Notes under the pieces: model-generated
Told to the model about the DNA's origin: nothing
Databases searched by the model: none
What the model saw: only the letters and a program-made list of their open reading frames with translations
Made by a program: the position numbers and the translations under genes
Source: Kordia aestuariivivens
GTDB lineage: Bacteria > Bacteroidota > Bacteroidia > Flavobacteriales > Flavobacteriaceae
Reading direction: 5' to 3'
Length of the DNA: 64,000 bases
NCBI RefSeq assembly: GCF_014397005.1
Contig: NZ_JACGWS010000016.1
Span: 62,001-126,000, forward strand
In this document: positions 45,679 to 62,195 of the stretch, one piece after another
Layout: the number at the start of each line of letters is the position of its first letter
Numbering within the stretch: position 1 is the first letter of the stretch

Positions 45679-45905
45679 GAGTTCGATATAAAAATTACAC
45701 GCAGGTGATTCTTTTTCCGAAGTGTAGCAGGCATTTTTCGTTAAGAATTTTTGAAGCCTTGGAAAAAATTTAGAAAAATGAATGCGGTTTTAGTTTTTCG
45801 AGAGAAAAACTAAAAACACCTCTGGAAAAAGCGCACTTTCTTTTGTTTCTTTTCTTTGTGCGCGCAAAGAAAACGAAAACGAAATACTTAGTTCTAAATT
45901 TTCAA
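45679..45905 (+). repeat. Dispersed structured intergenic element, copy 1
   Basis: It begins GAGTTCGATATAA, as the left end of copies 2 and 3 does (AGTTCGATATAA). Stem A: 45727-45739 with 45773-45785 (CATTTTTC/GAAAAATG). Stem B: AATTTTT 45746-45752 with AAAAATT 45764-45770, around the conserved loop GAAGCCTTGG. Stem C: TTTTAGTTTTTC 45788-45799 with GAAAAACTAAAA 45804-45815, loop GAGA. The conserved ACACCTCTGG and stem D (GCGCAC/GTGCGC) follow. The end shared with copy 2 is GAAATACTTAGTTCTAAATT; the right inverted end of copies 2 and 3 is degraded here. With the terminator it accounts for most of the 589-nt gap 45444-46032; the remainder is featureless AT-rich DNA. Confidence 0.85.
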
Positions 45906-46032
45906 GAGATAATCAAATTTTGTTTTATAGAAGTTACATCAAATTCATATTATAATAACAAAAAAAAATCACCAAAATGAATTGATGAATTTTTAAAAAT
46001 TTCATAGTGAAAAAATGAAGTTTTAACATGTT

Positions 46033-46242
46033 TTATAAACAAGCGCAATCTGATTGTATATGTACTGTAAATGGAGCTGGATCAGTAGTTCCGCAATCAC
46101 CTTGAAATGAACATTCATGCGTACAATGGTTAGAACATATATATCCAGATTTTGCTCCACCACCATTAACTTGGTTTGTGTCTAAATTTGATACTGAGTT
46201 TTTCTTTAAGTTTAATTTTGCGTGTAAGCTCTTTTTTTTCAT
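46033..46242 (-). CDS. GG-leader Cys-rich mini-peptide 3 (69 aa)
   Basis: It begins MKKKSLHAKLNLKKNSVSNL, matching the L-x-L-x-K-x-x-V-S-x-L leader of the other small peptides here, with a GGG (VNGGGAKS) near residue 28. The core carries seven Cys (ICSNHCTHECSFQGDC, SDCACL). This family is annotated in Bacteroidota as GG-leader natural-product or class I lanthipeptide precursors, usually without modification enzymes nearby. Its upstream region is a near-duplicate of that before the peptide at 46445 and contains a 21-bp-spaced direct repeat pair, so the two are probably co-regulated. Function unknown. Confidence 0.75.
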   Translation of the reverse strand: MKKKSLHAKLNLKKNSVSNLDTNQVNGGGAKSGYICSNHCTHECSFQGDCGTTDPAPFTVHIQSDCACL

Positions 46243-46304
46243 AATAATACAGTTTATAGTTAATATGCTAAAATCGTTTACAGACAGTCTTAGCTTCTGT
46301 CTTA

Positions 46305-46337
46305 CACTGTAAATATGAGCAAACTAAACACTGTAAA
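46305..46337 (-). promoter_or_regulatory. Duplicated TTTACAGTG pair upstream of mini-peptide 3
   Basis: CACTGTAAA occurs at 46305-46313 and 46329-46337 (24-bp period; TTTACAGTG on the coding strand). The same pair with the same spacing lies upstream of mini-peptide 4 (46689-46697 and 46713-46721), within a region of about 130 nt shared by the two genes. It may be an operator or part of the untranslated leader. Confidence 0.5.
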
Positions 46338-46345
46338 CAATAGTA

Positions 46346-46378
46346 AATTCATAAGCGCAGCTATCTACTTCATATTCG
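46346..46378 (-). promoter_or_regulatory. 21-bp-spaced direct repeat pair, candidate LytTR site (mini-peptide 3)
   Basis: AATTCATAAGCG (46346-46357) and ACTTCATATTCG (46367-46378) are 21 bp apart start to start. The pair begins 104 nt upstream of the start codon. Pairs with the same spacing occur before mini-peptide 4 and before the lipoprotein at 48408, and a LytTR regulator is encoded close by. Confidence 0.55.
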
Positions 46379-46392
46379 AGATTAAATCAAAA

Positions 46393-46420
46393 AAATGGTC
46401 AGAAGAAATTCTGACCATTT
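46393..46420 (-). terminator. Terminator after mini-peptide 4
   Basis: Arms AAATGGTCAGAA (46393-46404) and TTCTGACCATTT (46409-46420), with a T-run on the - strand. It separates mini-peptide 4 from mini-peptide 3, so each is its own transcription unit. Confidence 0.82.
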
Positions 46421-46444
46421 CTGAACCGAAGTTCTTTTTATAAT

Positions 46445-46627
46445 TTATCTTTCTGTAGGACAACCAGTAACTGTTAAATTACACCAACACGACCCAGCTA
46501 ATCCAGTACATAAATAACAAGTGTCAGCATAAGTTAAAATACCTTTTCCTTTTATTTCTTCTTGTTCCTTTAAACTAGAAATAGATTTTTTGTTGAGTTC
46601 CAATGATTTAAAATTCTTTTTTTTCAT
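46445..46627 (-). CDS. GG-leader-like Cys-rich mini-peptide 4 (60 aa)
   Basis: It begins MKKKNFKSLELNKKSISSLK, the family leader pattern. The usual GG is replaced by IKGKGIL near residue 26-31. The core has five Cys (DTCYLCTGLAGSCWCN, then VTGC), aromatic residues and Thr/Ser. It has its own terminator and an upstream region duplicated from that of mini-peptide 3. It may be a RiPP-like precursor with a non-standard cleavage site or a small secreted Cys-rich peptide; no modifying enzyme lies next to it. Confidence 0.7.
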   Translation of the reverse strand: MKKKNFKSLELNKKSISSLKEQEEIKGKGILTYADTCYLCTGLAGSCWCNLTVTGCPTER

Positions 46628-46688
46628 AATAATTATAGTTTGAAGTTAATAAATTAGTAGTGTGTATTGACAGTTTTTCTCTGTCTTA

Positions 46689-46762
46689 CACTGTAAATAT
46701 GCGCAATGTAATCACTGTAAACAATAGTAAATTCATAAGTGTACGTGTCTATTTCAAATTCG
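46689..46762 (-). promoter_or_regulatory. Duplicated upstream region of mini-peptide 4 with two repeat pairs
   Basis: It holds CACTGTAAA at 46689 and 46713 (24-bp period), then AATTCATAAGTG (46730-46741) and ATTTCAAATTCG (46751-46762), 21 bp apart. Order and spacing match the region before mini-peptide 3, and the distance from the 12-mers to the start codon is almost the same (103 against 104 nt). Confidence 0.55.
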
Positions 46763-46788
46763 TAATCAATTCCATAAAACATATAAAA

Positions 46789-46821
46789 AAAAGCCGCTTA
46801 CATAAAATGCAAACGGCTTTT
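46789..46821 (-). terminator. Terminator after the lipoprotein pair
   Basis: Arms AAAAGCCG (46789-46796) and CGGCTTTT (46814-46821). The A-run preceding the first arm gives a T-run on the - strand after the stop at 46844. Confidence 0.8.
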
Positions 46822-46843
46822 AATTCGATCTAAAAAATTACTT

Positions 46844-47623
46844 TTAATAATCTAAAAAGTCTTTAAAATCTTGTATATCATTATACTGTGTATAACTACA
46901 ATTTGTATCATTTATTGGTTCATCAAAATTTCTATATGGACGTGCAATTATAATATTATCATAGTTGTTCACATACGCGTTTGTAACGATTACATTGTGT
47001 GTCGTAGAATAAACATTATCACCTTCACTACCTGTTGTTGTTCCTAGTAGCGGATCGTAATAGCGTATAATTCCATCATTAAAATTTTCTAATGGATTCA
47101 TTGAATGACCAGTTGTAGTAATCGTGTAGTTTCCTGTATAATTCATTGACTTTGGAAAATACAATTCAATACACTGTTGATTCAGAATATAACTGATAAA
47201 CAGTCCTGTAAGACTTGAATGTCCACCGCCATTGATTCCTTGTGGAGGTGGATTTGGTCTAGTTTTATCGTGACTTGGACGGCCTTCAATGAAATAAAAG
47301 TTTGTTTGGTTACGAAATGCATCTGCAAAAGCAGTATTGTTTTCTAACAGTTGATTCAATCTAATAACTCGATTTCCATTTTGAAGCAACGCTGCAATTT
47401 CTAATTTTGCATCTAGATTATCTCTCAGGACGCTTCCTGCAATATAAGCTGTCCAACGCATATTGATTTCCAATATTTCTCGCTCACTGTAATTGCTTGT
47501 AGTTTCAAAACTTTTAAGTGTTATTGGTTTCGATTGTATTGCTTCTTCTTCAAATAATGAACCTTCTTTCTGACAAGAAAAAACACAAAGAAGCAACAAT
47601 AAAGGAAATAGTATCTTTTTCAT
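46844..47623 (-). CDS. Lipoprotein of unknown function, paralogue of the upstream gene (259 aa)
   Basis: The ATG at 47623 gives a lipoprotein signal MKKILFPLLLLLCVFSCQKE with lipobox Cys17; a longer frame from a TTG at 47656 would bury it. The body shares long identical stretches with the neighbouring paralogue: AKLEIAALLQ, HDKTRPNPPP, CIELYFPKSM, NYTITTTGH, VYSTTHNV and the C-terminal DFLDY. I recognise no known domain. The protein is probably anchored to the outer membrane or surface. The pair forms one unit ending at the terminator at 46789-46821, next to the mini-peptide genes and near a LytTR two-component system. Confidence 0.82.
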   Translation of the reverse strand: MKKILFPLLLLLCVFSCQKEGSLFEEEAIQSKPITLKSFETTSNYSEREILEINMRWTAYIAGSVLRDNLDAKLEIAALLQNGNRVIRLNQLLENNTAFADAFRNQTNFYFIEGRPSHDKTRPNPPPQGINGGGHSSLTGLFISYILNQQCIELYFPKSMNYTGNYTITTTGHSMNPLENFNDGIIRYYDPLLGTTTGSEGDNVYSTTHNVIVTNAYVNNYDNIIIARPYRNFDEPINDTNCSYTQYNDIQDFKDFLDY

Positions 47624-47652
47624 CTGCAATATAGTATAAGGTGATTTTTGTT

Positions 47653-48408
47653 TCAATAATCTAAAAAGTCTGTAAAATCTTCAATGTCGTCATATTGTAT
47701 ATAATCACAACTGATGCCATTTATAGGTTGAGAAGGCAGTCTATAAGGACGCGCTATAATGATATTATTGTAATTTTGCACATACGCAGGCGTGACCATT
47801 ACATTGTGTGTGGTAGAATATAGATTACTGCTTCTTTCTAATTGCGGTTCGTAATAACGAATAATTCCAGCATTCGAATCATCTTCCGCATTCATTGGAT
47901 GTCCTGTTGTGGTAATCGTGTAATTTCCAGCATAATCCATTGACTTTGGAAAGTACAATTCAATGCATTGTTCGTTCAAAATATAATTTATAAATATTGC
48001 TGCATGGTTAGATTGTCCGCTTCCTATTGGAGGTGGATTTGGCCGCGTTTTATCATGATTTGGATAACCCATAATCAAATATAAACCTGCCTTTTGATGA
48101 AATGTAGTTGCAAATACCGTATTGTTTTCTAAAATCTCATGCAACTTAACAATAGTATTTCCACTTTGAAGTAATGCTGCAATCTCCAATTTTGCTTCCG
48201 GACTATCTCTTAAGACACTTCCTGTAATATATGAAACCCAACGCAAGCTGATTTCTAATTCTTCTCGTGGAGAATAGGTGTCATCTGAAGGACTTCTTGA
48301 ACTTTTAATAATTGTTGTTTCAATGGCTTCTTCTTCGGTTAAAGGATCTTCTTTTTGACAAGAAAAAATACAAAGAAGCAACAGTAAAGGGAATACTATC
48401 TTTTTCAT
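47653..48408 (-). CDS. Lipoprotein of unknown function, tandem paralogue (251 aa)
   Basis: The start is ATG 48408 (MKKIVFPLLLLLCIFSCQKE, lipobox Cys17); a TTG at 48414 would add two residues. It is a tandem duplicate of the next gene, which begins 29 nt after its stop. They share the signal region, a Glu-rich stretch after the lipid Cys (EEEAIETT), ISLRWVSYITGSVLRD and the HDKTRPNPPP, CIELYFPKSM and NNIIIARPYR blocks. No catalytic motif is recognised. Upstream, two identical 12-mers ACTTCATATTCG spaced 21 bp mark a likely regulator-binding site. Confidence 0.82.
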   Translation of the reverse strand: MKKIVFPLLLLLCIFSCQKEDPLTEEEAIETTIIKSSRSPSDDTYSPREELEISLRWVSYITGSVLRDSPEAKLEIAALLQSGNTIVKLHEILENNTVFATTFHQKAGLYLIMGYPNHDKTRPNPPPIGSGQSNHAAIFINYILNEQCIELYFPKSMDYAGNYTITTTGHPMNAEDDSNAGIIRYYEPQLERSSNLYSTTHNVMVTPAYVQNYNNIIIARPYRLPSQPINGISCDYIQYDDIEDFTDFLDY

Positions 48409-48495
48409 ATACAATGCTATTATGAGATGAACTTTATTTTAAAAATAAGGATTAATTTACGAATAGAACGATTGCAATGATACTTGAAGGCTTTC

Positions 48496-48528
48496 ACTTC
48501 ATATTCGCGCGACTTTACTTCATATTCG
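48496..48528 (-). promoter_or_regulatory. Perfect 12-bp direct repeats spaced 21 bp, candidate LytTR site
   Basis: ACTTCATATTCG occurs at 48496-48507 and identically at 48517-48528 (period 21 bp, two helical turns). It lies 88 nt upstream of the lipoprotein start codon. Two 9- to 12-bp direct repeats about 21 bp apart is the known binding geometry of LytTR regulators such as AgrA. Confidence 0.65.
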
Positions 48529-48540
48529 TGAAATAATTGG

Positions 48541-48875
48541 AGTTCGATATAAAAATTATAAGCAACGGATTCTTTTTCCGTAGTGTAGCAGTCATTTTAC
48601 GTTAAGAATTTTCGAAGCCTTGGAGAAAATTTAGTAAAATGATTGCGGTTTAAGCTTTCCAAAGAGAAAGCTTAAAACACCTCTGGAAATCGAAGATTCA
48701 TGAATACTTTAGTTTAAAATATAAATAATATGAGCTAAAAAGCGCACTTTCTTTTGTTGAAGCCTGTGCTGAACTTGATTCAGTATTCTTTGTGCGAGCA
48801 AAGTAAAAGAAAATAAAAAACTAAAAATGAAATACTTAGTTCTAAATTTTCTAGAAATTATATCGAGAACTCACG
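48541..48875 (+). repeat. Dispersed structured intergenic element, copy 2
   Basis: Left end AGTTCGATATAA (48541) and right end TTATATCGAGAACTCAC form imperfect inverted termini. Stem A: 48588-48600 with 48634-48646 (CATTTTAC/GTAAAATG). Stem B: AATTTTC 48607-48613 with GAAAATT 48625-48631. Stem C: TTTAAGCTTTC 48649-48659 with GAAAGCTTAAA 48666-48676. Each arm pair differs from copy 1 yet stays complementary. Stem D (GCGCAC at 48742, GTGCG at 48792) encloses an extra hairpin segment also present in copy 3. With the direct repeats it fills most of the 470-nt gap 48415-48884. Confidence 0.85.
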
Positions 48876-48884
48876 TTAAAAAAA

Positions 48885-49628
48885 TCACGTAAATATCTTC
48901 TCTAATGTAAAGTCTTTTCTTCTGCTAGAAACGGGAACTTTAATATCCAAATGTATAATGAGTACACCATTTTTATCATACTTAATGACATGTTTCTTAT
49001 TTACAATATACGATTGATGGCAACGAATAAACAATTCTGGAGATAACAATTCTTCCACCTTTTTCAATGGTTTTGAAATCATTATCTTTTCTTGTTGTTG
49101 TGTGTAGAATGTAGTATAATTTCCTTCTGAACGACAATATAAAATATCTTTCTCATAGACTGCGTACACAGCGTCAGACGTTTTTAAAATCACTCTTTTC
49201 TCTTTTACACCTTCAAAGAAATCTTGTGAAACTTCTATTAATTTATCCAAATGATTTTCTTCGCTTTTAAGTGCAATCACTTTTTCAATAGCTTCCGTAA
49301 ATTCGTCTTCGTCTACAGGTTTTAAAATATAATCTAGCGCGCCAACTTTAATTGCTTTAATAGCATTATTATCAAACCCTGTGATGAAAATTATATTGAA
49401 TGCTTTATTGTCAATTGCTGTCAATAGATCAAATCCGGTGCCGTCGCCTAAATGAATATCGAGCAAAATCAAATCGGGTTTCAAAGCCTTCACTTGTGCA
49501 ATTCCAGAAGCAACATTGGAAGCTTCACCAACAACTTCAACAGTTTCGCTAAAATGTTCTCGAAGTTTCTCTTTCAAGTCATTGCGAATTGCGGCTTCGT
49601 CATCAATAATGAGCGTTTTAATTTTCAT
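48885..49628 (-). CDS. LytTR-family response regulator (247 aa)
   Basis: The receiver domain (about 1-120) has the acidic pocket DDE at 9-11, phosphoacceptor D57 (ILLDIHL) and the conserved Lys in YILKPVDE. The LytTR DNA-binding domain (about 140-245) has DILYCRSEGNYTTFYT and FIRCHQSYIVN, typical of this fold. Phosphorylation should come from the kinase encoded just upstream, whose end overlaps this start by 11 nt. LytTR proteins bind paired direct repeats about 21 bp apart; three such pairs lie within 3 kb, before the lipoprotein and mini-peptide genes, making them candidate targets. Confidence 0.94.
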   Translation of the reverse strand: MKIKTLIIDDEAAIRNDLKEKLREHFSETVEVVGEASNVASGIAQVKALKPDLILLDIHLGDGTGFDLLTAIDNKAFNIIFITGFDNNAIKAIKVGALDYILKPVDEDEFTEAIEKVIALKSEENHLDKLIEVSQDFFEGVKEKRVILKTSDAVYAVYEKDILYCRSEGNYTTFYTQQQEKIMISKPLKKVEELLSPELFIRCHQSYIVNKKHVIKYDKNGVLIIHLDIKVPVSSRRKDFTLEKIFT

Positions 49629-51465
49629 CTGAAAGTTTATAAGGAATCGCTAAGGTAACTAAAACTCCTGTTTCTGATTGTGTGTTTGTTTCAATAGAAA
49701 CTTCTTTTTTGGTCGATTTTTTCAAGAAATCAGCAATTAATTTGATCGAAACAGAGTCTTTAAACGTACTTCCTGGATCTGAAAATCCTTTTCCGTTATC
49801 GCGAATTGCACATAAAATATAGCTGTCTTTCTTCGTGAATGTCAACGCAATCAAACCACCATGTTCCATCGCGGAAAAACCGTGTTCAATACTATTTTCA
49901 ATAAAAGGTTGCAACAGCATTGGCGGAACAAAAATAAAATCATCTTCCTCCATATTTTCGTAGGTAAACGTATAGCTAAATTTTTCTGGGAAGCGAATCA
50001 ACTGAAAATCCATGTACTTTTTAAGCGCGTCAATTTCTTTTTCAAATTGAATGTAATTTTTTGTCGAATTTTCTAAAATCAAACGCAACAATCGTGAAAA
50101 CTTTACCAAATGTTTTTTTGCTTCTTCCGAACTAAATTTAATCGTATTCTGAATAGAGTAGAGGACATTTGACGTAAAATGCGGATTCATCTGACTGCGC
50201 AATAAACGTTGTTGCATTTGTAAATTGAGCCGTTCAAAACGTAGTTTTTTATTTCTATAATAGAGAATTCCGCCTAGCGTAAACAACAATAAAACACTGA
50301 AAAGTAGAAACAAAGTATTGCGCAATCGGATATTTTTGAGTTCAGTATTTTTCTTTTGTTCAAACAGTAAGGCTTCATTTGCTGCCGATTCTTTCAACGC
50401 AAGCAATTCAGATTCGTATTTGTCTTGGTATGATTTATTTTGATTGTCCAACAAACGATCGAGTTCAGTTTCAACAATTGCTAACGATTCTTGCGTTTCG
50501 TTTGCTAATTTGAGTTCATATTTTAAAATATTTCGTTGATAATCGTTTGGTAATTTTTCAAAATTTTGACCTTTTGCAGAATCTAAATACTTACGTGCTT
50601 TGTCATACTCTTTTATGATAATATACGCTTCAGCGATGTTGGAATAACTATTTGCCAACAGTTCATTTTGATCAAAAACTTTCAATAATTTTACATTTTT
50701 GAGTGATTTTTTATAGTTTGAAATCGCACTTGTAAAATCACCTTGATAAAAATCGTAAATACCTCTGGAAGAATATACTTGACGTTTTAAATCGGTGGTT
50801 AAAAGCGAATCTTTTCGAATTAAATCATCTAAGATTTTTACACCTTCGTTTTCACGATTTAAGTAATATAAAATATTGTATTGACTCAGTAACTCTTGAT
50901 GGTTTGTCAACTTCAAAGAAGGATTTTTTTCAATAATTTCAATCCGTTTTTTATTGGCTGAAAGTGCTTTTTCATAACGCGAAGTCACTTTGTAAATATC
51001 TTCCAGAAAGAAATAATAATGACCTGAATTTAGCGGGTCTTTTTTCAAGTTTATTTTTCGTTTGAACGAATCTGCTAAAGTCATACAATCGCCATATTTC
51101 CCAAGACTTTTATAGGTTTCAAAAGCAACAAAATACTGAAAGAACTGTCGCGAATTTTGAATAGAATCTTCTTGTGCTTCTGTGGCTTTATAGAAATATT
51201 CTGAAGCATTTTCTAAGTCGCTTAGCTCTCTGTAATACAATCCAAACTGAAACAAATTTTCGGTTTTCAACGAATCAGAAACGCCCGCGTGTTGCTGAAT
51301 GAGTTTGTCTGCTTTTTGCAGATAATAAAATGTAGAATCTGAAGCAGTTTTTATAGCTTTTTGCTGAAGCGAACTAACCTTTTGAGACGCTTCAACAGGA
51401 GTCAATTTTTTTTGACAACCAATCACTACAAACACTAAAAATACACACGATAGATACTTTGACAT
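49618..51465 (-). CDS. TPR-containing LytS-like sensor histidine kinase (615 aa)
   Basis: The ATG at 51465 gives a signal/lipobox-like start (MSKYLSCVFLVFVVIGCQKK); the open frame runs further upstream but lacks such a signal. The sensor part is a series of TPR-like helical repeats (about 60-330), then a coiled segment and one membrane helix (FLLFSVLLLFTLGGILYY). The His_kinase motif RSQMNPHFTSNVLYS follows; the family norm is NPHFLFN, so the region after the His varies. An HATPase with DNGKGF completes it. This TPR-LytS plus LytTR pairing is common in Flavobacteriia. An inverted repeat TGTAAACAT/ATGTTTACA lies 3 nt upstream of the start. Confidence 0.88.
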   Translation of the reverse strand: MSKYLSCVFLVFVVIGCQKKLTPVEASQKVSSLQQKAIKTASDSTFYYLQKADKLIQQHAGVSDSLKTENLFQFGLYYRELSDLENASEYFYKATEAQEDSIQNSRQFFQYFVAFETYKSLGKYGDCMTLADSFKRKINLKKDPLNSGHYYFFLEDIYKVTSRYEKALSANKKRIEIIEKNPSLKLTNHQELLSQYNILYYLNRENEGVKILDDLIRKDSLLTTDLKRQVYSSRGIYDFYQGDFTSAISNYKKSLKNVKLLKVFDQNELLANSYSNIAEAYIIIKEYDKARKYLDSAKGQNFEKLPNDYQRNILKYELKLANETQESLAIVETELDRLLDNQNKSYQDKYESELLALKESAANEALLFEQKKNTELKNIRLRNTLFLLFSVLLLFTLGGILYYRNKKLRFERLNLQMQQRLLRSQMNPHFTSNVLYSIQNTIKFSSEEAKKHLVKFSRLLRLILENSTKNYIQFEKEIDALKKYMDFQLIRFPEKFSYTFTYENMEEDDFIFVPPMLLQPFIENSIEHGFSAMEHGGLIALTFTKKDSYILCAIRDNGKGFSDPGSTFKDSVSIKLIADFLKKSTKKEVSIETNTQSETGVLVTLAIPYKLSDEN

Positions 51466-51467
51466 AA

Positions 51468-51498
51468 TGTAAACATAAGTAAAAAATGTATGTTTACA
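51468..51498 (-). promoter_or_regulatory. Inverted repeat just upstream of the kinase start
   Basis: TGTAAACAT (51468-51476) and ATGTTTACA (51490-51498) are perfect 9-bp inverted repeats. They begin 3 nt upstream of the start codon, so they would lie in the leader or act as an operator. Regulator unknown. Confidence 0.45.
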
Positions 51499-51527
51499 AA
51501 TGTTAAGTGCTGTTTGTGGTGCGCGTA

Positions 51528-52499: not shown

Positions 52500-52613
52500 T
52501 TCGAGTTACTTTTTTAAGATGTTTACCATCTAATTTATTCATACTTAAAGTTATGCTTTTTTTTAGGACTTAAAAAAGGTTTTCCGTAAACAACACTATT
52601 TTCTAATTATACA

Positions 52614-52639: not shown

Positions 52640-52693
52640 CGGCAAATCAGTGATTATTTCTATCTTGAAGTATAACCCAAAAAACTTTTAATC

Positions 52694-55260: not shown

Positions 55261-55277
55261 CTGATGAATTTTTATAT

Positions 55278-55607
55278 TTATTCTAATCCTTCGAGCTCTT
55301 TCTCGATCTCTTTGACGTCTTCTTTTTCTTGTTGTTCCTTCTCTTTTACAGTTTGTTTTACATCATCTGCCACTTTATTCTCTCTAAACATATTCATTGT
55401 GGTAATAGCTGCTGCCAGAAATGATAATGCAATGATCAACTTTGGAACACTATCACGCAAACCATTTCTTTTAGAAATAACCAATGCAGCTATTCCTAAA
55501 ATAAGTCCTAAAGCAATAGGCATAAAAGCAAAACTATCTAAAAAGAAAGAAAATAAAAAACCTAATACGGCAGCAATGCTACCTATAATAATACAAAAAG
55601 TTCTCAT
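55278..55607 (-). CDS. Small membrane protein with acidic/basic coiled tail (109 aa)
   Basis: Three hydrophobic segments lie within residues 1-70 (SIAAVLGFLFSFFL, FMPIALGLILGIAALVI, LIIALSFLAAAIT). A charged, probably coiled-coil tail rich in Glu and Lys follows (KVADDVKQTVKEKEQQEK, then EIEKELEGLE). No family is recognised with certainty. The gene begins 23 nt after the stop of the DUF3108 gene on the same strand and likely shares its transcript. A terminator follows. Confidence 0.75.
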   Translation of the reverse strand: MRTFCIIIGSIAAVLGFLFSFFLDSFAFMPIALGLILGIAALVISKRNGLRDSVPKLIIALSFLAAAITTMNMFRENKVADDVKQTVKEKEQQEKEDVKEIEKELEGLE

Positions 55608-55630
55608 GGTATGTATTTTAGTTTTAATGA

Positions 55631-56419
55631 TTAATTAGCTAAGCCAGTAGCGTTTGTTAATTGTAACGTTCCGCTTCCGATAGGAATGGTAAACCGTGCT
55701 TGTACAGGAATTTTGTTTGCATCAGCTGTTAACCAAAGTGTTCCAGATTTTAAAAAATCACCCGAAGTCAATACTTGTAACTTATAGCATTCTTTTTGCC
55801 CTAAGTTTCCAGCACGGATCGTTTCTTTTCCAACAAATTTAATGGTAATTGATGTTTCTTCTCGATCAAACAAAATTTTAAACGTTTTAGTATCTCCAAT
55901 TTTAGCGTTTTCAATAGGTAAGTTTCTTAAATTATATAACGTAGAAACTACATCCATTGCTCCGCTACTAAAGCTAAAGTTTTTATCTTGAACCCAATCA
56001 GTACCATTTCCTCTGCGTTTGGTTTGTGTACTTTTTATCGTTTTTGTCTTCTGATTGTACACATACTTCATTTTCTTCTTATAACCGCCTTCTTGGATAT
56101 CTCTTTTGTACAATAAAGGAAGTAATGAATATTTGCTTACATACGATTCATAAACATCACGAATTTTAAAAAATGCATCAAGCTTTTTATAAGTATTTGC
56201 ACGACATTTAAAATGCAACAATGTACTACTTGATGTTTTTACTTCTGATGTTTCCATGCTCACTTGCGCTAACTCTGTCATTAAGCCCGACACTTTATAA
56301 GATGCTGTAAACGTTAGTTTTTCGCCATCTTTAAAAGCCAAGCTTTCTTGAGCAATAGCAACAGCTTGAGACATACATAGTACCAAAAACAGACAAACTA
56401 TCTTTTTTATATTCTTCAT
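55631..56419 (-). CDS. DUF3108-type secreted protein (262 aa)
   Basis: A Sec signal peptide (MKNIKKIVCLFLVLCMSQAVAIAQ) is followed by the DUF3108 pattern: FKDGEKLTFTASYKVSG near the start, a KIRDVYESYV segment, and a C-terminal SGTLWLTADANKIPVQAR. Members are periplasmic beta-rich proteins of unknown function, common in Bacteroidota. The gene is divergent from the hypothetical gene at 56547 and followed closely by the small membrane protein gene. Confidence 0.85.
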   Translation of the reverse strand: MKNIKKIVCLFLVLCMSQAVAIAQESLAFKDGEKLTFTASYKVSGLMTELAQVSMETSEVKTSSSTLLHFKCRANTYKKLDAFFKIRDVYESYVSKYSLLPLLYKRDIQEGGYKKKMKYVYNQKTKTIKSTQTKRRGNGTDWVQDKNFSFSSGAMDVVSTLYNLRNLPIENAKIGDTKTFKILFDREETSITIKFVGKETIRAGNLGQKECYKLQVLTSGDFLKSGTLWLTADANKIPVQARFTIPIGSGTLQLTNATGLAN

Positions 56420-56511
56420 TATTGAGTTCTTTATTCTTTATATTAACGCAGCATAAATCACTTATTGTGCCAAACCTTATTAATGTGTACAAAACATCGT
56501 ATTACATTTTG

Positions 56512-56519
56512 TAGCTTTG
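56512..56519 (+). promoter_or_regulatory. Bacteroidota-type -7 box (TAnnTTTG)
   Basis: TAGCTTTG matches the Bacteroidota consensus exactly and lies 28 nt before the ATG at 56547. This also argues against the TTG at 56517 being the start. The -33 element is not clear. Confidence 0.6.
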
Positions 56520-56546
56520 GCAAAAATACACCATTACACTTTAGTG

Positions 56547-57101
56547 ATGAAATTAAAATATCATAAACAAAACTTTTTCAAAAACACCTATTGTATTTTC
56601 AAAACGGTTGCTATTGAAATCATTAAGGATAAAAAGCCAAATTACACAAGCCGATCTGGTAGTCAGTATTTTTATACAGAAGAAGGTGTATATCGCATTT
56701 CTTCACATTGGGGAAGAGCTGCTACTTGCAAATGGCGATTGCAAACGGAAGAAGAAAATACTAATTTCAGGAATACAACTAAAGTAGGTTTTGCCAAATG
56801 GTCAAGTTTTTATAGGGATAATGAAGTTGAAAAATTATACTTCATCAAAAAGAGTGAATTCACCAACAAATACGAATACTTTCATAAAAACGAACCTACA
56901 TACACTTCTGATTATGTTGTGCGTACCGCAGATGAAACTCGGAAAGTATTGAGACAGTTAAAAGCGATTACCACAGAAACCAAATGGGCAAAGTACATTC
57001 CACATGATGATTTAGACGATTTACGAAACTTTCTCATCAACGGATTAATTACTTCTAACAAAACGTTGCAAGAACTCAAACGTGCTTATACTAACCCTTA
57101 G
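56547..57101 (+). CDS. Hypothetical cytosolic protein (184 aa)
   Basis: The ATG at 56547 (MKLKYHKQNFFKNTYCIF) is preferred over a TTG at 56517 that overlaps the promoter. The protein is basic and aromatic, with no signal peptide or membrane segment. It contains EEGVYRISSHWGRAATCKWR and a later KWAKYIPHDDLDDLRNF segment. I do not recognise the family. Its stop codon TAG overlaps the first bases (AGTTCGATATAA) of dispersed element copy 3, so the element's insertion may have set the present C-terminus. Confidence 0.75.
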   Translation: MKLKYHKQNFFKNTYCIFKTVAIEIIKDKKPNYTSRSGSQYFYTEEGVYRISSHWGRAATCKWRLQTEEENTNFRNTTKVGFAKWSSFYRDNEVEKLYFIKKSEFTNKYEYFHKNEPTYTSDYVVRTADETRKVLRQLKAITTETKWAKYIPHDDLDDLRNFLINGLITSNKTLQELKRAYTNP

Positions 57102-57458
57102 TTCGATATAAAATTTGAAAACCGATTCCTTCTTTTCCGCAGTATAGCAGGAATTTTTCGTTAAGAATTTTTGAAGCCTTGGAGAAAATTTAGAAAAATT
57201 CATGCGGTTTTAGTTTTTCAATAAAAGAAAAACTAAAAATACCTCTGGGAAAGCGCACTTTCTTTTGTTGAAGCCTGTGCTGAACTAGATTCAGTATTCT
57301 TTGTGCGAGCAAAGAAAACGAAATCGAAGATTCATGAGTTCTGCAATTTGAAATAAAAATGACACGAACTAAAATAAAGAACTGATTTTTAGTATTTTAA
57401 ATTTCATATGGGAAGTGTTGACAAAATTTCATTTAAATGAAACTTATATCGAACTCAC
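57100..57458 (+). repeat. Dispersed structured intergenic element, copy 3
   Basis: Left end AGTTCGATATAA (57100) and right end TTATATCGAACTCAC (to 57458) form terminal inverted repeats. Stem A: 57147-57159 with 57193-57205 (GAATTTTTC/GAAAAATTC). Stem B: AATTTTT/GAAAATT around loop GAAGCCTTGG. Stem C: TTTTAGTTTTTC with GAAAAACTAAAA, loop AATAAAA. Stem D (GCGCAC/GTGCG) encloses the same nested CTGAA...TTCAG hairpin as copy 2. This is the most complete copy, about 359 bp, and it fills the 373-nt gap 57102-57474. Confidence 0.87.
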
Positions 57459-57474
57459 ATTACATTAGTGATTC

Positions 57475-57849
57475 TTAAAGAAAAGAAACACCCAATAAAA
57501 TCCAACCGATCACTAATAACAGTCCGCCAAGTGGCGTAATTGGACCTAAAAAGCGTAGTTTCTTGCCTTTTGCGCTGCTGATGCATAAACCATATATGCT
57601 AAACGAAAACAAAAACGTTCCTGCAATAAAACACCATGCAATCGCAGTTTCTAAACTTTCCGTAAACGAAAATTGAAATCCGATCACCAATAATACAATA
57701 GCGTGATACATTTGATACTTTACGCCAGTTTCAAAGCTTTTTAGTAAATCATCTGATAAAATTTTCTTCAATGCATGCGCACCAAATGCTCCAAAAATAA
57801 TTCCCAATGCGCCATACAAAGCCGCAATTAATAATACGTATTTTTCCAT
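57475..57849 (-). CDS. DUF423 family membrane protein (124 aa)
   Basis: With the start at 57849 (MEKYVLLIAALYGALGIIFG) the protein has four hydrophobic helices and the DUF423 signature FGAFGAHALKKIL near residue 20-32, then MYHAIVLLVIG and PITPLGGLLLVIGWILLG at the end. It is a small inner-membrane protein found across bacteria with no established function. The frame extends 12 codons further, but those overlap a TACCTTTG -7 box, so the shorter start is better. Confidence 0.9.
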   Translation of the reverse strand: MEKYVLLIAALYGALGIIFGAFGAHALKKILSDDLLKSFETGVKYQMYHAIVLLVIGFQFSFTESLETAIAWCFIAGTFLFSFSIYGLCISSAKGKKLRFLGPITPLGGLLLVIGWILLGVSFL

Positions 57850-57853
57850 GGCG

Positions 57854-57861
57854 CAAAGGTA
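57854..57861 (-). promoter_or_regulatory. Bacteroidota-type -7 box before the DUF423 gene
   Basis: On the - strand TACCTTTG matches TAnnTTTG and lies 4 nt from the chosen ATG. A TTG about 21 nt further upstream can serve as the -33 element. The transcript would be nearly leaderless. Confidence 0.5.
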
Positions 57862-58021
57862 AAAGATAATAGTTGCTTCTCTCAAATTATTCTAAAAATT
57901 ACTATTAAAGCATTTATGGAAATTTTTAGTTATTAATTTTTCATTTTCTTTGCTCGCATAAAGAAAACAGAAACAAAAGGACCAGAACTTATAGTGCCAT
58001 AGTGCTAATATGTTGTACGCG

Positions 58022-58411
58022 CTACTGATTCATTTCCATCTCAGATGAATATTGACAACATTTTGGCAATTTCTTATACGCTAATTTATTTCCTTTTTCT
58101 TTGTCTGTATCGTAACCAGCGTCCGCAATTGCTTCGCGAAGATCGGTTTCATTCGCTTTTGCTGCATCATACGATACTTGAATACTTTTCTTCTTTATGT
58201 CCCAAGTTGCTTCGGCAACGCCATCCACACTTTTAGCCGCTTTTTCAATGGTAGTTTTGCACATTCCACAATTTCCGCGTACGCCAAAATTAGCCACGGC
58301 TAAATCCTTTCCTTGCTCAGTTGTTGTTTTTACGTCTGTTTTCGCTTCATTTTTACAGCTAATCACTGTTAATGAAACAACTGCTAATAGACTTAAAATT
58401 ACTTTTTTCAT
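58022..58411 (-). CDS. HMA-domain lipoprotein (metal-binding, 129 aa)
   Basis: The lipoprotein signal is MKKVILSLLAVVSLTVISCKNE. An HMA fold follows at about 40-105, with the metal site NCGMCKTTIEKA (CxxC) and typical VDGVAEATWDIKKKSIQVSY and IADAGYD elements. A second Cys pair lies near the end (KCCQY). It should bind Cu(I) or a similar metal in the periplasm and hand it to or from the Cus-type efflux system. It is the last gene of the operon, 19 nt after chrA. Confidence 0.88.
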   Translation of the reverse strand: MKKVILSLLAVVSLTVISCKNEAKTDVKTTTEQGKDLAVANFGVRGNCGMCKTTIEKAAKSVDGVAEATWDIKKKSIQVSYDAAKANETDLREAIADAGYDTDKEKGNKLAYKKLPKCCQYSSEMEMNQ

Positions 58412-58430
58412 TGTTTTAAAAATTTAAAAA

Positions 58431-59567
58431 TTAAAATAGTTGATATAAAATATAACCTAAAATGGCTCCTATAATCACAATCCAAAAAGCATTCAGTTTC
58501 TTATAATAAAAAACCAAAACCATACTTATGATTGCGATTGTAATAGATTGCCAATTGATAAGAATTTCTTCTGATAAATGATACGTAACACCAATCATGA
58601 TTCCAACTGCCGAAATATTCACAGCGTCTAAAAAACCAGAAGCTAATTTCGATTTTCGCAATTTTGGCACAATCGGATTCAATACTAATACAAAAATAAA
58701 GGATGGTAAAAAGATTCCTAAAGTCGCAACGAGTGCGCCCCAAATTCCATTAATTTGATAACCGACAAAGGATGCAGTAGATAATACTGGACCTGGCGTA
58801 AACTGCCCGATAGCAATAGCATCTAACAATTCCGATTTTGTAAGCCATCCTAGTTTTTCAACCAATTCAGCATCCAAATAAGCAACTAAAACGTATCCGC
58901 TGCCAAATAAAATAGCGCCAACTTTTAAGAATACGAAAAAAAGTTTGGCATTCGTAACTGTTTTAGTCAAGGCTATTCCTGACGAGATTAGAAATGCAGG
59001 CGCGAAAACATTCAATTTTTTATCAGACATTTTCGGAACGCCTAACCATATTAATCCTATAAAACCACCTAATAAAATAATGGTAATTTCATTAATTCCA
59101 CATACGGAAGCGATCACGGTTGCCATACCAATGACGGCTAATTGCCAGTTTTTTAATGCTTTGTTACCTAATTTATAGATTGCTGAAAGTATAATTGCGA
59201 TTACGGCTGGTTTTATGCCGTACAAGAAAGGTTCAATTTGCGGTAACTTTCCATAACTCACATACAAATACGCTAAGATTGTTGTAAATACAACGGCAGG
59301 AAAAATAAAGGATATACCAGCAACAAATAGTCCTTTCCAACCTGCACGTTCATGACCACAATGCATCGTCATTTCGGTTGAATTTGGACCAGGAATAAGA
59401 TTGGTAGCGCCCATTAAATCTAAAAAATGTTCGCGTGTCATCCACTTTCGTTTACTGACAACTTCATCTTCCATCATGGCAATATGTGCCGCAGGACCGC
59501 CAAATGCAAACATGCCTAGTTTTAAAAAAACAGTCGCTACTTCTTTTAAATTCCCTTTAGTTTTCAC
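58431..59567 (-). CDS. chrA: CHR-family chromate/anion transporter (378 aa)
   Basis: It has two homologous halves, as in full-length ChrA. FLKLGMFAFGGPAAHIAMMEDEVV opens the first half (the FGGP and MEDE signature) and FLKVGAILFGSGYVLVAYLDAELV (the FGSGY form) opens the second. PGPNSTEMTMHCG and FTPGPVLSTASFVGY are the matching second motifs. About ten membrane helices are predicted. CHR proteins export chromate; many members in metal clusters have untested substrates. It begins 6 nt after the CusB-like gene stop, so it is cotranscribed with the Cus genes. Confidence 0.92.
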   Translation of the reverse strand: MKTKGNLKEVATVFLKLGMFAFGGPAAHIAMMEDEVVSKRKWMTREHFLDLMGATNLIPGPNSTEMTMHCGHERAGWKGLFVAGISFIFPAVVFTTILAYLYVSYGKLPQIEPFLYGIKPAVIAIILSAIYKLGNKALKNWQLAVIGMATVIASVCGINEITIILLGGFIGLIWLGVPKMSDKKLNVFAPAFLISSGIALTKTVTNAKLFFVFLKVGAILFGSGYVLVAYLDAELVEKLGWLTKSELLDAIAIGQFTPGPVLSTASFVGYQINGIWGALVATLGIFLPSFIFVLVLNPIVPKLRKSKLASGFLDAVNISAVGIMIGVTYHLSEEILINWQSITIAIISMVLVFYYKKLNAFWIVIIGAILGYILYQLF

Positions 59568-59573
59568 GTTATC

Positions 59574-61259
59574 TTACTTCAATACTTGTTTTACTTCTCC
59601 ACATGTCAACATCATATCGCCAAAATACGGATTTCTGATTTTTTCTTCAGTACTCAACCAATAGGCGCCTTTGTCATTGTTTGCCATTGGACAAAATTGT
59701 ACCGTAAGTTGTTGGTCTAATGTATCAAAATTTTGAACCATTTCTATAATATGGTTTGAAATGATTCGAAATTTTTCACGTTGTTTTTCAATCGTAACAT
59801 CTTTATTGATTCCTTTCGATGTTTTATGTAGCATTGACCAATACATATTTGAAGCATCTCGTTGTGGAATGGTTAATAGCTCCAATGCTTTTCGGAAGGC
59901 TTCACTCTTTGCTGCTGCGAGTTTTACATCGCTTTGCACCAATGCATCTTTTAGTTCAACATAAGCTTTTATAGAAGCTTGAAACGATTTTTCAAAAGCT
60001 GCATCAAACTCCAATTTTGTAGGTTCTTTTTTTGTTGAAGTTTCCTTCCGAGCATTCATCATCGATTTTTTGCCTTGCAATTGTGCGGCTGCATCCACAG
60101 TAAATGTTCCGTTTGTGACAATTTCGTCTTCAGCAGTAAGTCCAGAAACGACTTCGTAATTGTCTGCAATTGCAGTTCCTAAGGTAATTTCTCGCGCTTC
60201 AAAAACAGGTTCGTTGGCAGATGTTTTTACATAGACAATCGAACGTTTTCCTGTCCATAAAATTGCCGATTTCGGAATGGTCAACACTGTACTTTTGGCT
60301 GTATTGGTAGCTAACAAACCAGTAACAAACATGCCAGGTTTTAATTTCCCATCACGATTGTTCAATTCTACTTTCACCGAAACAGTTCGCGTAGCGGTAT
60401 TCAATACAGGATCAATAAATGTGATCTTTGCAGAAATCTTTTCATTTGGATTTGCATTAGTCGTAATCGTAATTTCATCTCCTTTTTTCAAACTAGACAA
60501 TTGCTTTTCGTACGCATCAAAACTTGCCCAAACTGTATTCAAATTAGAGACTTTAAACAATGCGCCACCTTCCATAATGTGATTTCCTTCTGAGACCATT
60601 TTTTCCGTGACAACGCCAGAAACACTTGCGTAAATAGGAAATTGCGAAGACACTTTTTGTGAAGTTTCAATCTGTTGAATTTGCGCTTCGGAAAGTTTCC
60701 ATAGTTTTAACTTATTCCGAACTGCTTTGTATAAAGCTGGTTGCGATTCTTTCATGCGAATGGCAGTAATCAATTCTTGTTGTGTGGTGACTAATTCAGG
60801 TGAATATATCAAGGCGATTCGCTGTCCTTTTCGAACTTCTTCACCTGTAATATTTACATATAATTTTTCAATACGTCCACCAAAATGTGCCGTTTGGATA
60901 GCGTTTGTCTTTTCATTGGCTTCAATCGTTCCTGTGAGTTTCATTGCAGTATCTGCAGCTGTTCCTTCAGAAATCTTTGTAGTTTCAATATTTGCCAATG
61001 CCATCGCGTTTTTAGACATTCGAAATTGATCCGAAGACAATTTCGTGCTACTTTCTTCCATAGGAATCAAATCCATTCCACAAATTGGACAATCGCCAGC
61101 TTCCGTGAGCATAATTTGTGGATGCATAGAACACGTCCATTTGGAAGCTTCCGCAGTTGTTTCATGCGTGTGTGTTTCGGCTGTTTCGCCAGAAAAGACA
61201 AACTTTCCAATGACAATTCCGACAACAATTAAAACGATATAAATGATATACTTTTTCAT
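59574..61259 (-). CDS. CusB-like RND adaptor with metal-binding N-terminus and DUF3347-like tail (561 aa)
   Basis: An N-terminal membrane anchor (about 4-22) is followed by a heavy-metal-binding motif WTCSMHPQI...CPICGMDLIP (about 42-68). The adaptor body comes next: lipoyl halves (GGRIEKLYVNITGEEVRKG and YASVSGVVTEKMVSEG), beta-barrel and membrane-proximal domains (to about 400). A DUF3347-type helical domain (about 415-540) closes the protein. It should link the CusA-like pump to the CusC-like channel and capture Cu(I) or Ag(I). It lies 18 nt after the HMA-MauE gene. Confidence 0.92.
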   Translation of the reverse strand: MKKYIIYIVLIVVGIVIGKFVFSGETAETHTHETTAEASKWTCSMHPQIMLTEAGDCPICGMDLIPMEESSTKLSSDQFRMSKNAMALANIETTKISEGTAADTAMKLTGTIEANEKTNAIQTAHFGGRIEKLYVNITGEEVRKGQRIALIYSPELVTTQQELITAIRMKESQPALYKAVRNKLKLWKLSEAQIQQIETSQKVSSQFPIYASVSGVVTEKMVSEGNHIMEGGALFKVSNLNTVWASFDAYEKQLSSLKKGDEITITTNANPNEKISAKITFIDPVLNTATRTVSVKVELNNRDGKLKPGMFVTGLLATNTAKSTVLTIPKSAILWTGKRSIVYVKTSANEPVFEAREITLGTAIADNYEVVSGLTAEDEIVTNGTFTVDAAAQLQGKKSMMNARKETSTKKEPTKLEFDAAFEKSFQASIKAYVELKDALVQSDVKLAAAKSEAFRKALELLTIPQRDASNMYWSMLHKTSKGINKDVTIEKQREKFRIISNHIIEMVQNFDTLDQQLTVQFCPMANNDKGAYWLSTEEKIRNPYFGDMMLTCGEVKQVLK

Positions 61260-61277
61260 CTGTTTTTTATTTCAACA

Positions 61278-62000
61278 TTAACTATATAATTTAACCAACA
61301 TCCAAACTGCCATCACGAGCATGATTGAGTTTTCAATAAACGTAGCTTTCGTCATTGGTAATTTTAAAGCAGTTCCTAAACAAGCACATTGAATCGCTTT
61401 TTTGTCAAACAATGCTTTAGTCACGCCAATGGTTGTAATTCCTAAAATGATAATTGTAACGATCAACGCCATTGGAATTTGGAATCTGAATAAAAAGAAT
61501 ATACCAAGCGTAATTTCTATAAACGGATAGATCCACGCATACGCAGGAATTTGCTTTGCTAACGGATCGTACATTTGAAACGATTTTGGAAATCCGGTAT
61601 AATCTAAAAACTTAAAAAAGCTAAAGACTACATAAAAAAGTCCCATGAAATCGAGCATAAATTCAGAAACTGACCAATCATTGAGGTTCATTAACACAGT
61701 TGCCGTTGTGATGTATAAGAAGATTAAAAACAACGGGAAAAGTTGTTGTAATTCACTCTTTTCTTCGGTAGTTTCAACCTGTGTAAATACATGTTGAGTT
61801 TGCTCCTGAATCGTATACTTTTCAGGTAAAGCAGCTTGTAATGTTTGCAAATCGGGTAGAGGAGAAGCGTCAATGATAGCTTCTGACTGTTCTAAATTCA
61901 CCGTTGCAGAAGTCACGCTTTCTAAACCGTTCAAGATTTTTTCGACTTGACTGCGACAACCGTTGCAAGTCATTCCTGTGATTTTATATATTTTTTTCAT
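61278..62000 (-). CDS. HMA domain fused to MauE/DoxX-like membrane protein (240 aa)
   Basis: The start at 62000 (MKKIYKITGMTCNGCRSQVE) begins directly with the HMA domain; an ATG at 62012 would add four residues. The metal site GMTCNGC lies within residues 9-15 and the HMA domain ends near 70. Four membrane helices follow, of the MauE type (YVVFSFFKFLDYTGFPKSF, PFIEITLGIFFLFRF, ACLGTALKLPMTKATFIENS), with a Cys pair CAC near the third helix. The fusion is typical of flavobacterial copper-efflux operons and may relay metal or electrons at the inner membrane. Dispersed element copy 4 lies between it and the upstream TolC gene. Confidence 0.87.
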   Translation of the reverse strand: MKKIYKITGMTCNGCRSQVEKILNGLESVTSATVNLEQSEAIIDASPLPDLQTLQAALPEKYTIQEQTQHVFTQVETTEEKSELQQLFPLFLIFLYITTATVLMNLNDWSVSEFMLDFMGLFYVVFSFFKFLDYTGFPKSFQMYDPLAKQIPAYAWIYPFIEITLGIFFLFRFQIPMALIVTIIILGITTIGVTKALFDKKAIQCACLGTALKLPMTKATFIENSIMLVMAVWMLVKLYS

Positions 62001-62030
62001 TTTTATAAACATTTATTTTATGTGTTCTTT

Positions 62031-62195
62031 TCTTTGCTTTCCCAAAGAAAACGAACCAAAAGAAAGGGAACTTTTATGAGGTGTTTTTAGTTCTTCTTTA
62101 AAAAGAACTAAAACCGTACTATTGATCCTAAATTTCTTCCAAGGCTTCAGAAATTTTTAACGTATCAATAGTACTACACTGCATAAAAGAGGGAA
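62031..62195 (-). repeat. Dispersed structured intergenic element, copy 4 (inverted, short form)
   Basis: It reads on the - strand. Stem A: GTACTATTGAT 62116-62126 with ATCAATAGTAC 62164-62174. Stem B: AAATTTCT 62130-62137 with AGAAATTT 62149-62156, around the conserved loop (GAAGCCTTGG on the - strand). Stem C: TTTTAGTTCTT 62085-62095 with AAGAACTAAAA 62103-62113. Stem D: TTCCC 62039-62043 with GGGAA 62066-62070, replacing the GCGCAC/GTGCGC pair of the other copies. The terminal GTTCGATATAA ends are missing. It lies inside the metal-efflux operon. Confidence 0.83.

What the first reader, a model, noticed from the sequence alone, without database searches (positions are those of the whole stretch)
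45679..62195. Four-copy intergenic element with compensatory base changes in at least four stems
Copies at 45679, 48541, 57100 and (inverted) 62031-62195 share a core: stem A, stem B with an invariant GAAGCCTTGG loop, stem C, ACACCTC, stem D. Arms differ between copies but stay complementary. Stem A: CATTTTTC/GAAAAATG, CATTTTAC/GTAAAATG, GAATTTTTC/GAAAAATTC, CTATTGAT/ATCAATAG. Stem B: AATTTTT/AAAAATT, AATTTTC/GAAAATT, AAATTTCT/AGAAATTT. Stem C: AGTTTTTC/GAAAAACT, AGCTTTC/GAAAGCT, AGTTCTT/AAGAACT. Stem D: GCGCAC/GTGCGC, TTCCC/GGGAA. Covariation in every stem points to a selected RNA or single-stranded DNA fold. Copies 2 and 3 also have terminal inverted repeats (AGTTCGATATAA ... TTATATCGA(G)AACT), as a mobile element would. 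I know no named family matching it.
Basis: seen in the sequence. Interest (0 to 1): 0.85.

Follow-up and report, generated by a model that had tools for sequence, protein, structure and literature searches.

The report
Mobile folded RNA with triple helix
Scattered through this marine bacterium and many relatives is a copied DNA element whose RNA keeps one elaborate fold, apparently including a three-stranded helix, often just behind genes, where it may protect messenger RNA from decay.

Summary
The four copies belong to a family with 79 model matches in this genome (probably Kordia), present in all 11 genus genomes searched and in other Bacteroidota, without an Rfam 15 match. The fold is strongly supported: 48 of 50 modelled pairs change on both sides across genera, and in a tree-aware null test 18 of 19 significant pairs lie in the model; the 19th belongs to one further helix. 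"Stem D" is a pseudoknot whose pyrimidine loop matches the purine strand of its helix as a major-groove triple helix would, with covarying position and length. In Kordia the RNA rides in a short inverted-repeat element with 4-5 bp direct repeats; eight relatives lack copy 4. In the own genome and in Winogradskyella, not clearly elsewhere, copies favour the sense side behind a gene; in Winogradskyella orthologous copies mostly outlast their flanks. Best reading: a mobile mRNA structure that stalls 3'-to-5' decay. Family, fold and mobility are shown; triplex is inferred from covariation; function is inferred.

The parts
45674..45691 (+). copy 1, left terminal inverted repeat (AACTAGAGTTCGATATAA)
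   Evidence: read; TIR family defined
45713..45880 (+). copy 1, RNA core: P1, P1b, P2, P3, P4 and triplex pseudoknot
   Evidence: R1 match 188.8 bits, E 1.3e-45
45933..45951 (+). copy 1, decayed right inverted repeat (by eye)
   Evidence: read
48535..48552 (+). copy 2, left terminal inverted repeat
   Evidence: read
48574..48689 (+). copy 2, first RNA domain (P1-P4)
   Evidence: R1 match 126.6 bits, E 5.7e-30
48690..48739 (+). nested insertion (~50-nt repeat, TCGAAGATTCATGAATAC...GAGCTAAA) between P1 and the pseudoknot
   Evidence: (D13)
48740..48815 (+). copy 2, pseudoknot domain, with a second insertion in its loop
   Evidence: (D9)
48858..48877 (+). copy 2, right terminal inverted repeat
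   Evidence: read
57093..57111 (+). copy 3, left terminal inverted repeat; overlaps the stop codon of the ORF 56517-57101
57133..57325 (+). copy 3, RNA core with an insertion in the pseudoknot loop
   Evidence: R1 match 148.8 bits, E 1.5e-35
57444..57461 (+). copy 3, right terminal inverted repeat
57937..58001 (-). truncated relic, mainly the hairpin of the pseudoknot domain
   Evidence: R1 match 40 bits, E 3.4e-8
62021..62188 (-). copy 4, RNA core without inverted repeats, in the spacer between two co-oriented ORFs (end 62231, ATG 62012)
   Evidence: R1 match 163.4 bits, E 3.1e-39; absent at the orthologous place in 8 relatives

Best explanation
The element is a mobile, cis-acting messenger-RNA structure. 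Its DNA is copied around the genome; in Kordia it is carried by a ~330-bp non-autonomous inverted-repeat element. Where it lies in sense behind a gene it becomes part of that gene's transcript, as a 3' or intercistronic untranslated segment. There it folds into a three-way-junction domain (P1, P1b, P2 with P3, P4) followed by an H-type pseudoknot, S1 plus S2, whose pyrimidine loop L1 lies in the major groove of S2 as U.A-U and C+.G-C triples. My most likely function: the compact 3'-proximal triplex stalls 3'-to-5' exonucleases, so the upstream cistron outlasts the rest of the message, as the protective structure between malE and malF does in E. coli. Shown: the family, the covarying fold, RNA polarity, mobility, sense bias in two lineages, conservation in place in Winogradskyella. 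Inferred from covariation: the triplex. Inferred: transcription, and the decay-blocking function.
For: Family: 63 pattern places, 0 in the reversed control; 79 model matches, a few of them fragments or opposite-strand echoes; 11 of 11 genus genomes. Fold: own genome 28 of 56 pairs with both-sided changes (shuffles 13.1, slid 6-11); cross-genus 48 of 50 (shuffles 36.9, slid 28-40). Tree-aware null: 6 significant pairs, 5 in my structure as then set; cross-genus 19, 18 in it; the odd pair in each belongs to P1b, which RNAalifold also finds. RNA: G-T 100 against A-C 5 (49 against 5 without two G-U-rich pairs); cross-genus 194 against 34, on an alignment fitted to the model. Triplex: 19 of 23 distinct types fully matched, shuffles at most 15 (0 of 5000). 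Sense bias: upstream gene co-oriented 41 of 58 in the own genome (p 0.002) and 24 of 30 in the Winogradskyella set (p 0.001). Conservation in place: L133 against L343 core 0.97, flanks 0.75 and 0.71, coding 0.79. Precedent: malE-malF (PMC5927463, passages).
Against: No transcript or decay data. The sense bias is not general: in other genera, once 11 Winogradskyella-type loci that overlap the Winogradskyella set are removed, the upstream gene is co-oriented at 30 of 52 (p 0.33; with them 41 of 63); in G009 18 of 27 (p 0.12), tandem copies 7:7. 17 of 58 own-genome copies follow a gene on the opposite strand and could not protect it. The invariant unpaired CGUUAA and GAAGCCUUGGA are more than an exonuclease block needs; some variants lack them. 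In paaD/G pairs the upstream flank is sometimes as conserved as the core (0.88-0.94). In the triplex test 79 of 283 sites did not parse, and 30 of 173 usable ones had no pyrimidine loop as parsed, 21 of them alike, with an S1 (as in G009) that lacks four Watson-Crick pairs.
Confidence: 0.36

Rival explanations
1. Cis-regulatory switch or protein site for the downstream gene: the invariant internal loop and P3 loop bind a protein or ligand, and the fold controls translation of the next cistron.
For: Strict conservation of unpaired CGUUAA and the P3 loop. In several operons the element ends close upstream of the next ATG. Repeated presence in paa (10 of 30) and bioD/bioA (3 of 30) spacers.
Against: Downstream genes are varied, and many copies are followed by a convergent gene (17 of 58 own, 13 of 63 in other genera). 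Variants without the conserved loop exist.
Confidence: 0.23
2. The fold serves the element itself: a structured RNA or folded DNA strand needed for transposition or persistence, with no benefit to the host.
For: Mobile, with near-identical copies in unrelated flanks. No sense bias in G009 or, clearly, in other genera. In plants an RNA triple helix raises retrotransposon mobility (PMC12501189, start of abstract in the listing).
Against: At orthologous Winogradskyella sites copies mostly keep the core while flanks diverge, in genomes with 1-3 matches. Inverted-repeat elements with the same ends also occur without the core. By eye the Kordia-type ends are missing around most copies of other genera.
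Confidence: 0.24
3. A new self-cleaving or processing RNA that cuts the message at a fixed point.
For: Complex fold with invariant single-stranded nucleotides; many dispersed copies.
Against: No match to any Rfam 15 family, ribozymes included; no cleavage site evident.
Confidence: 0.07
4. Guide RNA of an OMEGA/TnpB-type nuclease, or single-stranded DNA substrate of a Y1 (IS200/RAYT) transposase.
For: Dispersed structured element; the tetranucleotide GTAG/ATAG (columns 13-16) runs into the P2 hairpin.
Against: PF07282 in 0 of 12 carrier genomes. Y1_Tnp in 6 of 11 genus genomes, absent from G009, G004, G002 and G008, which have 38, 47 (capped), 19 and 18 matches. G-U polarity speaks for RNA. IscB was not searched; HEARO did not match.
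Confidence: 0.04

Closest known systems
REP sequences and the malE-malF protective intercistronic structure (E. coli)
   Same: Structures in operon spacers whose RNA fold resists 3'-to-5' decay and stabilises the upstream gene (PMC5927463, passages)
   Different: REPs are 20-40 bp palindromes (PMC3733652, start of abstract and passages); this is a ~165-nt multi-helix RNA with a pseudoknot and apparent triplex, not tied to Y1 transposases here
Bacterial MITEs (ERIC, BOX and the like)
   Same: Short non-autonomous element with inverted ends and direct repeats, intergenic (reviews PMC2229807 and PMC10969869, starts of abstracts in listings only)
   Different: The internal RNA covaries pair by pair, is found without these inverted repeats in other genera, and mostly stays intact in place over species divergence in Winogradskyella
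Flavo-1 RNA (Rfam RF01705)
   Same: Structured RNA motif of Bacteroidetes, widespread in Flavobacteriaceae, function unclear (PMC9723704 passages; PMC2864571 table row)
   Different: 76-position model; its one match in the loci scanned is at a different place (L133:3075-3181); no copy of our element matched it
Triple-helix RNA stability elements (ENE; MALAT1, KSHV PAN, plant Copia93) and H-type triplex pseudoknots (telomerase RNA and SAM-II recalled; SAM-V in the listing)
   Same: U-rich strand in the major groove of an A-U helix; ENEs protect RNA 3' ends, and in Copia93 aid mobility (PMC12501189, start of abstract)
   Different: Bacterial, encoded in one local pseudoknot, no poly(A) tail; triplex here inferred from covariation only

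Membership tests
Flavo-1 (RF01705) | match to the Rfam covariance model | tested here: not met
   No match in the window at gathering score, nor at E<=10 over 45500-62400; in 32 other loci only one match, at a separate place
MITE | terminal inverted repeats | tested here: met
   AACGTGAGTTCGAYRTAA...TTATATCGAACTSACGTT around many Kordia copies; by eye missing around most copies of other genera, present in L128
MITE | target-site duplication | tested here: met
   4-5 bp direct repeats around G009 copies, e.g. L265 AATCT, L263 and L269 AATTT, L264 AAAAT (read by eye; length not constant)
MITE | autonomous partner with the same ends | tested here: not met
   Pairs among the listed G009 ends are about 400 bp or shorter; the list is cut among three-mismatch places. 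In the own genome one pair of one-mismatch places 1.2 kb apart was not examined further
REP/RAYT repeats | short single palindrome mobilised by a Y1 transposase | tested here: not met
   ~165-nt multi-helix unit; PF01797 absent from 5 of 11 carrier genomes of the genus
OMEGA/TnpB guide RNA | nuclease gene in the same genome | tested here: not met
   PF07282 in 0 of 12 carrier genomes; it rang in 6 of 14 control genomes
HEARO | match to the Rfam model | tested here: not met
   No HEARO match
H-type pseudoknot with major-groove triplex | parallel pyrimidine strand matching the purine strand, covarying | tested here: met
   19 of 23 distinct types fully matched, shuffled maximum 15; unparsed sites left out
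H-type pseudoknot with major-groove triplex | triples seen by structure probing or crystallography | not testable with these tools
   needs bench work
3'-protective intercistronic mRNA element | sense position behind a co-transcribed gene | tested here: inconclusive
   co-oriented upstream gene 41 of 58 own genome and 24 of 30 Winogradskyella set, but 18 of 27 in G009 and 30 of 52 in other genera are not significant
3'-protective intercistronic mRNA element | longer half-life of the upstream cistron | not testable with these tools
   needs RNA decay data

The most novel reading that the evidence does not exclude
Bacteroidota carry a superfamily of mobile 3'-protection modules: RNAs built on a triplex-forming pseudoknot with interchangeable upstream domains, inserted behind genes and in some lineages kept by selection to set the relative lifetimes of cistrons in operons such as paa and bio. 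This would be a bacterial counterpart of the eukaryotic ENE, spread by transposition.
Probability: 0.29. Interest if true: 0.9.

Novelty: new variant of a known kind. Interest (0 to 1): 0.74.

Why it matters
If right, a large and well-studied bacterial phylum has an undescribed, transposable RNA part that works like a portable mRNA stabiliser. It would make testable the old question of whether dispersed bacterial repeats are recruited to tune operons, because orthologous copies, empty sites, sense and antisense copies and natural fold variants are all available. It would also give a large natural alignment of a triplex pseudoknot for structural study.

Tried and rejected
Rfam: nothing on the element in the window or in 32 other loci. 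Plasmids, copy 1 core only: no match. IMG/VR viral contigs, one exact pattern: 0. Partner protein: all-against-all comparison of flanking ORFs printed recurrent TonB receptors, two-component proteins, paa and other metabolic genes (names by recall) and one small unnamed family (see Noticed in passing); I saw no recurrent transposase, reverse transcriptase or nuclease among the clusters printed. Y1 transposase and TnpB do not track the element. No transposase-size pair of ends. My first structure had a 2-bp base to P4 (columns 75-76/111-112) that never covaries; it was replaced by P1b. Model R1 still contains those two pairs. RNAalifold, which cannot draw pseudoknots, chose S1 over the S2 hairpin and did not draw P1. 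Intrinsic terminator: no T-run after the hairpin (by eye). Literature searches listed no paper that I recognised as describing this element; the library lacks most subscription papers.

Rows dropped: of 63 own-genome sites 42 went into the alignment; 12 were over-long (insertions) and 9 had no recognised 3' end. Searches used the first 93 of 126 rows of A3; one search used all. Triplex test: 283 sites, 204 parsed, 173 with a purine run of at least 5, 143 with a pyrimidine loop, 23 distinct types. A first, smaller run had 34 of 52 types fully matched and 2 of 2000 shuffles as good on mean match.
Full report
The observation. Model R1 finds copies 1, 4 and 3 over their whole length and copy 2 with its pseudoknot displaced by an insertion, plus a relic at 57937-58001 (-). 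A 24-base pattern from the P3 region, with up to 3 mismatches, has 63 places in the 5.46-Mb genome and none in the reversed-pattern control. The model gives 79 matches at E <= 0.001, a few of them fragments or opposite-strand echoes. Rfam 15 has nothing on the copies.

The fold. I aligned 42 of the 63 copies (12 with insertions and 9 without a recognised end were left out). With the corrected structure 96.6% of cells pair (shuffles 88.0) and 28 of 56 pairs show both-sided changes (shuffles 13.1, slid versions 6-11). Across genera, on an alignment fitted to R1 and so leaning towards it, 48 of 50 pairs do (shuffles 36.9, slid 28-40), and the covariation score is 0.429 against 0.116. Because copies are related, I wrote a null of the R-scape kind that redistributes the tree's own substitutions over columns: 6 pairs were significant in the own-genome set, 5 in my structure; 19 in the cross-genus set, 18 in it. 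The extra pair in each set lies in one helix I had missed, P1b, which RNAalifold also predicted without guidance and which forms Watson-Crick pairs in 88 to 91 of 93 rows per position. This is a small reimplementation, not R-scape itself. The architecture is P1 - P1b - three-way junction with P2 (enclosing P3 and its nearly invariant GAAGCCUUGGA loop) and P4 - then an H-type pseudoknot.

RNA, and which strand. Among paired cells G·T occurs 100 times and A·C 5 times in the own-genome set; without two G·U-rich pairs 49 against 5; across genera, on the fitted alignment, 194 against 34. A DNA fold, or RNA from the other strand, would not be expected to give this asymmetry.

The triplex. The pseudoknot's loop L1 (e.g. 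UUUCUUUU) runs parallel to the purine strand of S2 (AAAGAAAA), as U·A-U and C+·G-C triples require; a Watson-Crick competitor would read UUUUCUUU. Where the G moves the C moves (AAAAGAAA with UUUUCUUU), where the G is lost the C is lost, and run lengths tend to follow. Of 23 distinct purine/pyrimidine types 19 match fully; 5000 shuffles averaged 7.9 and never passed 15. Over 143 sites the first C and first G share the index, or are both absent, in 139. Independent shifts are few, 79 of 283 sites did not parse, and 30 of 173 usable ones had no pyrimidine loop as parsed, so this is strong but indirect.

Distribution. 21 of 60 relatives, own genome included, have matches: all 11 of the genus and 10 others, the latter with few copies. 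An even draw of 247 genomes of the class gave 17 with matches, own included; most distant ones are weak (E 1e-8 to 1e-5). In those the first domain differs altogether while a closing stem and a pseudoknot in the same triplex register remain (by eye); some closer variants lack the P3 block. I read this as a superfamily with a constant 3' module.

Mobility. In Kordia many copies sit in elements with ends AACGTGAGTTCGAYRTAA...TTATATCGAACTSACGTT. In G009 these are ~330 bp, lie in unrelated flanks and carry 4-5 bp direct repeats; 21 of 25 copies have a paralogue at 97% or more over 85 nt. In the own genome 18 of 62 do. Elements with the same ends but no core exist, so carrier and core are separable. 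No autonomous partner was found. For copy 4, at the orthologous junction 8 relatives have only a short spacer (by eye); G008 has about 100 nt, perhaps with a relic; G004 lacks the place. Of 25 G009 copies compared, 2 share both flanks with an own-genome copy, and 2 more share one flanking gene in another arrangement; at one shared site stem P2 differs by compensatory changes.

Position. The gene just upstream is co-oriented at 41 of 58 own-genome copies (p 0.002) and 24 of 30 copies of the Winogradskyella set (p 0.001); tandem contexts are 24:7 and 19:3 sense to antisense. In G009 it is 18 of 27 (p 0.12), tandem 7:7. Other genera gave 41 of 63, but that set contained 11 Winogradskyella-type loci; without them it is 30 of 52 (p 0.33), tandem 17:11 (p 0.34). 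So the bias is clear in two lineages only. The contrast of own plus Winogradskyella with G009 has p 0.034 by Fisher's test, compatible with insertion without preference followed by retention, but 14 copies are few. Finding that the bias is not general made me lower the odds of the mRNA-protection reading from 0.42 to 0.36 and of the novel case from 0.33 to 0.29.

Conservation. In the genus of G305 (Winogradskyella by record title) 18 of 41 genomes have 1 to 3 matches. Of 30 loci examined (28, 2 from an Ichthyenterobacterium genome), 10 lie in spacers of the phenylacetate operon, at five different spacers, 3 between bioD and bioA, and 3 behind what looks like a nucleoside phosphorylase gene. 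NCBIfam confirms PaaA, PaaB, PaaD, PaaZ, a 3-oxoadipyl-CoA thiolase, BioD and BioA above cut-off; PaaG and PaaH are below theirs. One further locus (L175) has four matches in its paa region, one clearly a variant. Orthologous cores outlast their flanks in most pairs: paaJ/Z L133-L343 0.97 against 0.75 and 0.71; bioD/A L157-L189 0.88 against 0.67 and 0.54; phosphorylase group 0.82-0.87 against 0.67 and 0.54-0.63; upstream coding DNA 0.71-0.79. Exceptions: in the paaD/G group the upstream flank is sometimes equally conserved, L166 carries an insertion, L196/L351 are truncated, and two bio pairs are the same sequence twice.

Mechanism. An intercistronic RNA, kept in place in one lineage, ending in a compact triplex, is what a block to 3'-to-5' exonucleases would look like; malE-malF is the tested precedent (PMC5927463, passages). 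Function is unproven; the conserved loops leave room for a protein or ligand, and the lack of a general sense bias leaves room for a selfish role. On membership it fails Flavo-1, REP/RAYT and TnpB; it would work like a REP stabiliser and, in Kordia, is carried like a MITE.

Noticed in passing
L104, L121, L186, L217, L330/L347, L332/L346, L337: A ~270-aa protein family without Pfam or NCBIfam match above cut-off (3 members scanned) lies within about 2.5 kb of the element at 9 loci (about 7 distinct genes) in several genera. Whether this exceeds its background frequency is not known.
   Followed up: partly
window 48690-48739; also e.g. L011, L038, L042, L052, L059, L060: A ~50-nt repeat (TCGAAGATTCATGAATAC...CATGAACTAAA) inserts into loops of the RNA element, after P1 or inside P3; another (GAAGCCTGTGCTGAACTTGATTCAGTAT) sits in the pseudoknot loop. 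Loops seem to be tolerated landing sites.
   Followed up: partly
L228-L232: Inverted-repeat elements with the same ends but no core carry a different repeat (GTCACTTCGAGC...GTCGAGAAGC), so the carrier is a modular mosaic.
   Followed up: partly
L290-L314: Distant relatives with closing stems such as CCACGCTGA/TCAGCGTGG, an unrelated inner hairpin (GCGAACC...GGTTGG) and the same pseudoknot register; possibly an even larger repeat family in other Bacteroidota.
   Followed up: partly
L110:1501-1588: A weak match, mainly the pseudoknot part, lies between two ORFs that look like halves of methionine synthase, with a SAM riboswitch (RF00162) at L110:2901-3003.
   Followed up: no
L133:3075-3181: A Flavo-1 RNA (RF01705) lies near one copy of the element, in the same paa region.
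   Followed up: no
window 46000-46650 (-): Two small ORFs (69 and 60 aa) with a MKKK...LNLKK-like leader and a cysteine-bearing C-terminal part, next to duplicated 100-bp regions 83% alike (46296-46395 and 46680-46779); they look like ribosomally made peptide precursors.
   Followed up: partly
window 46844-47656 and 47653-48414 (-): Tandem paralogous genes, stretches 73-85% alike in DNA.
   Followed up: no
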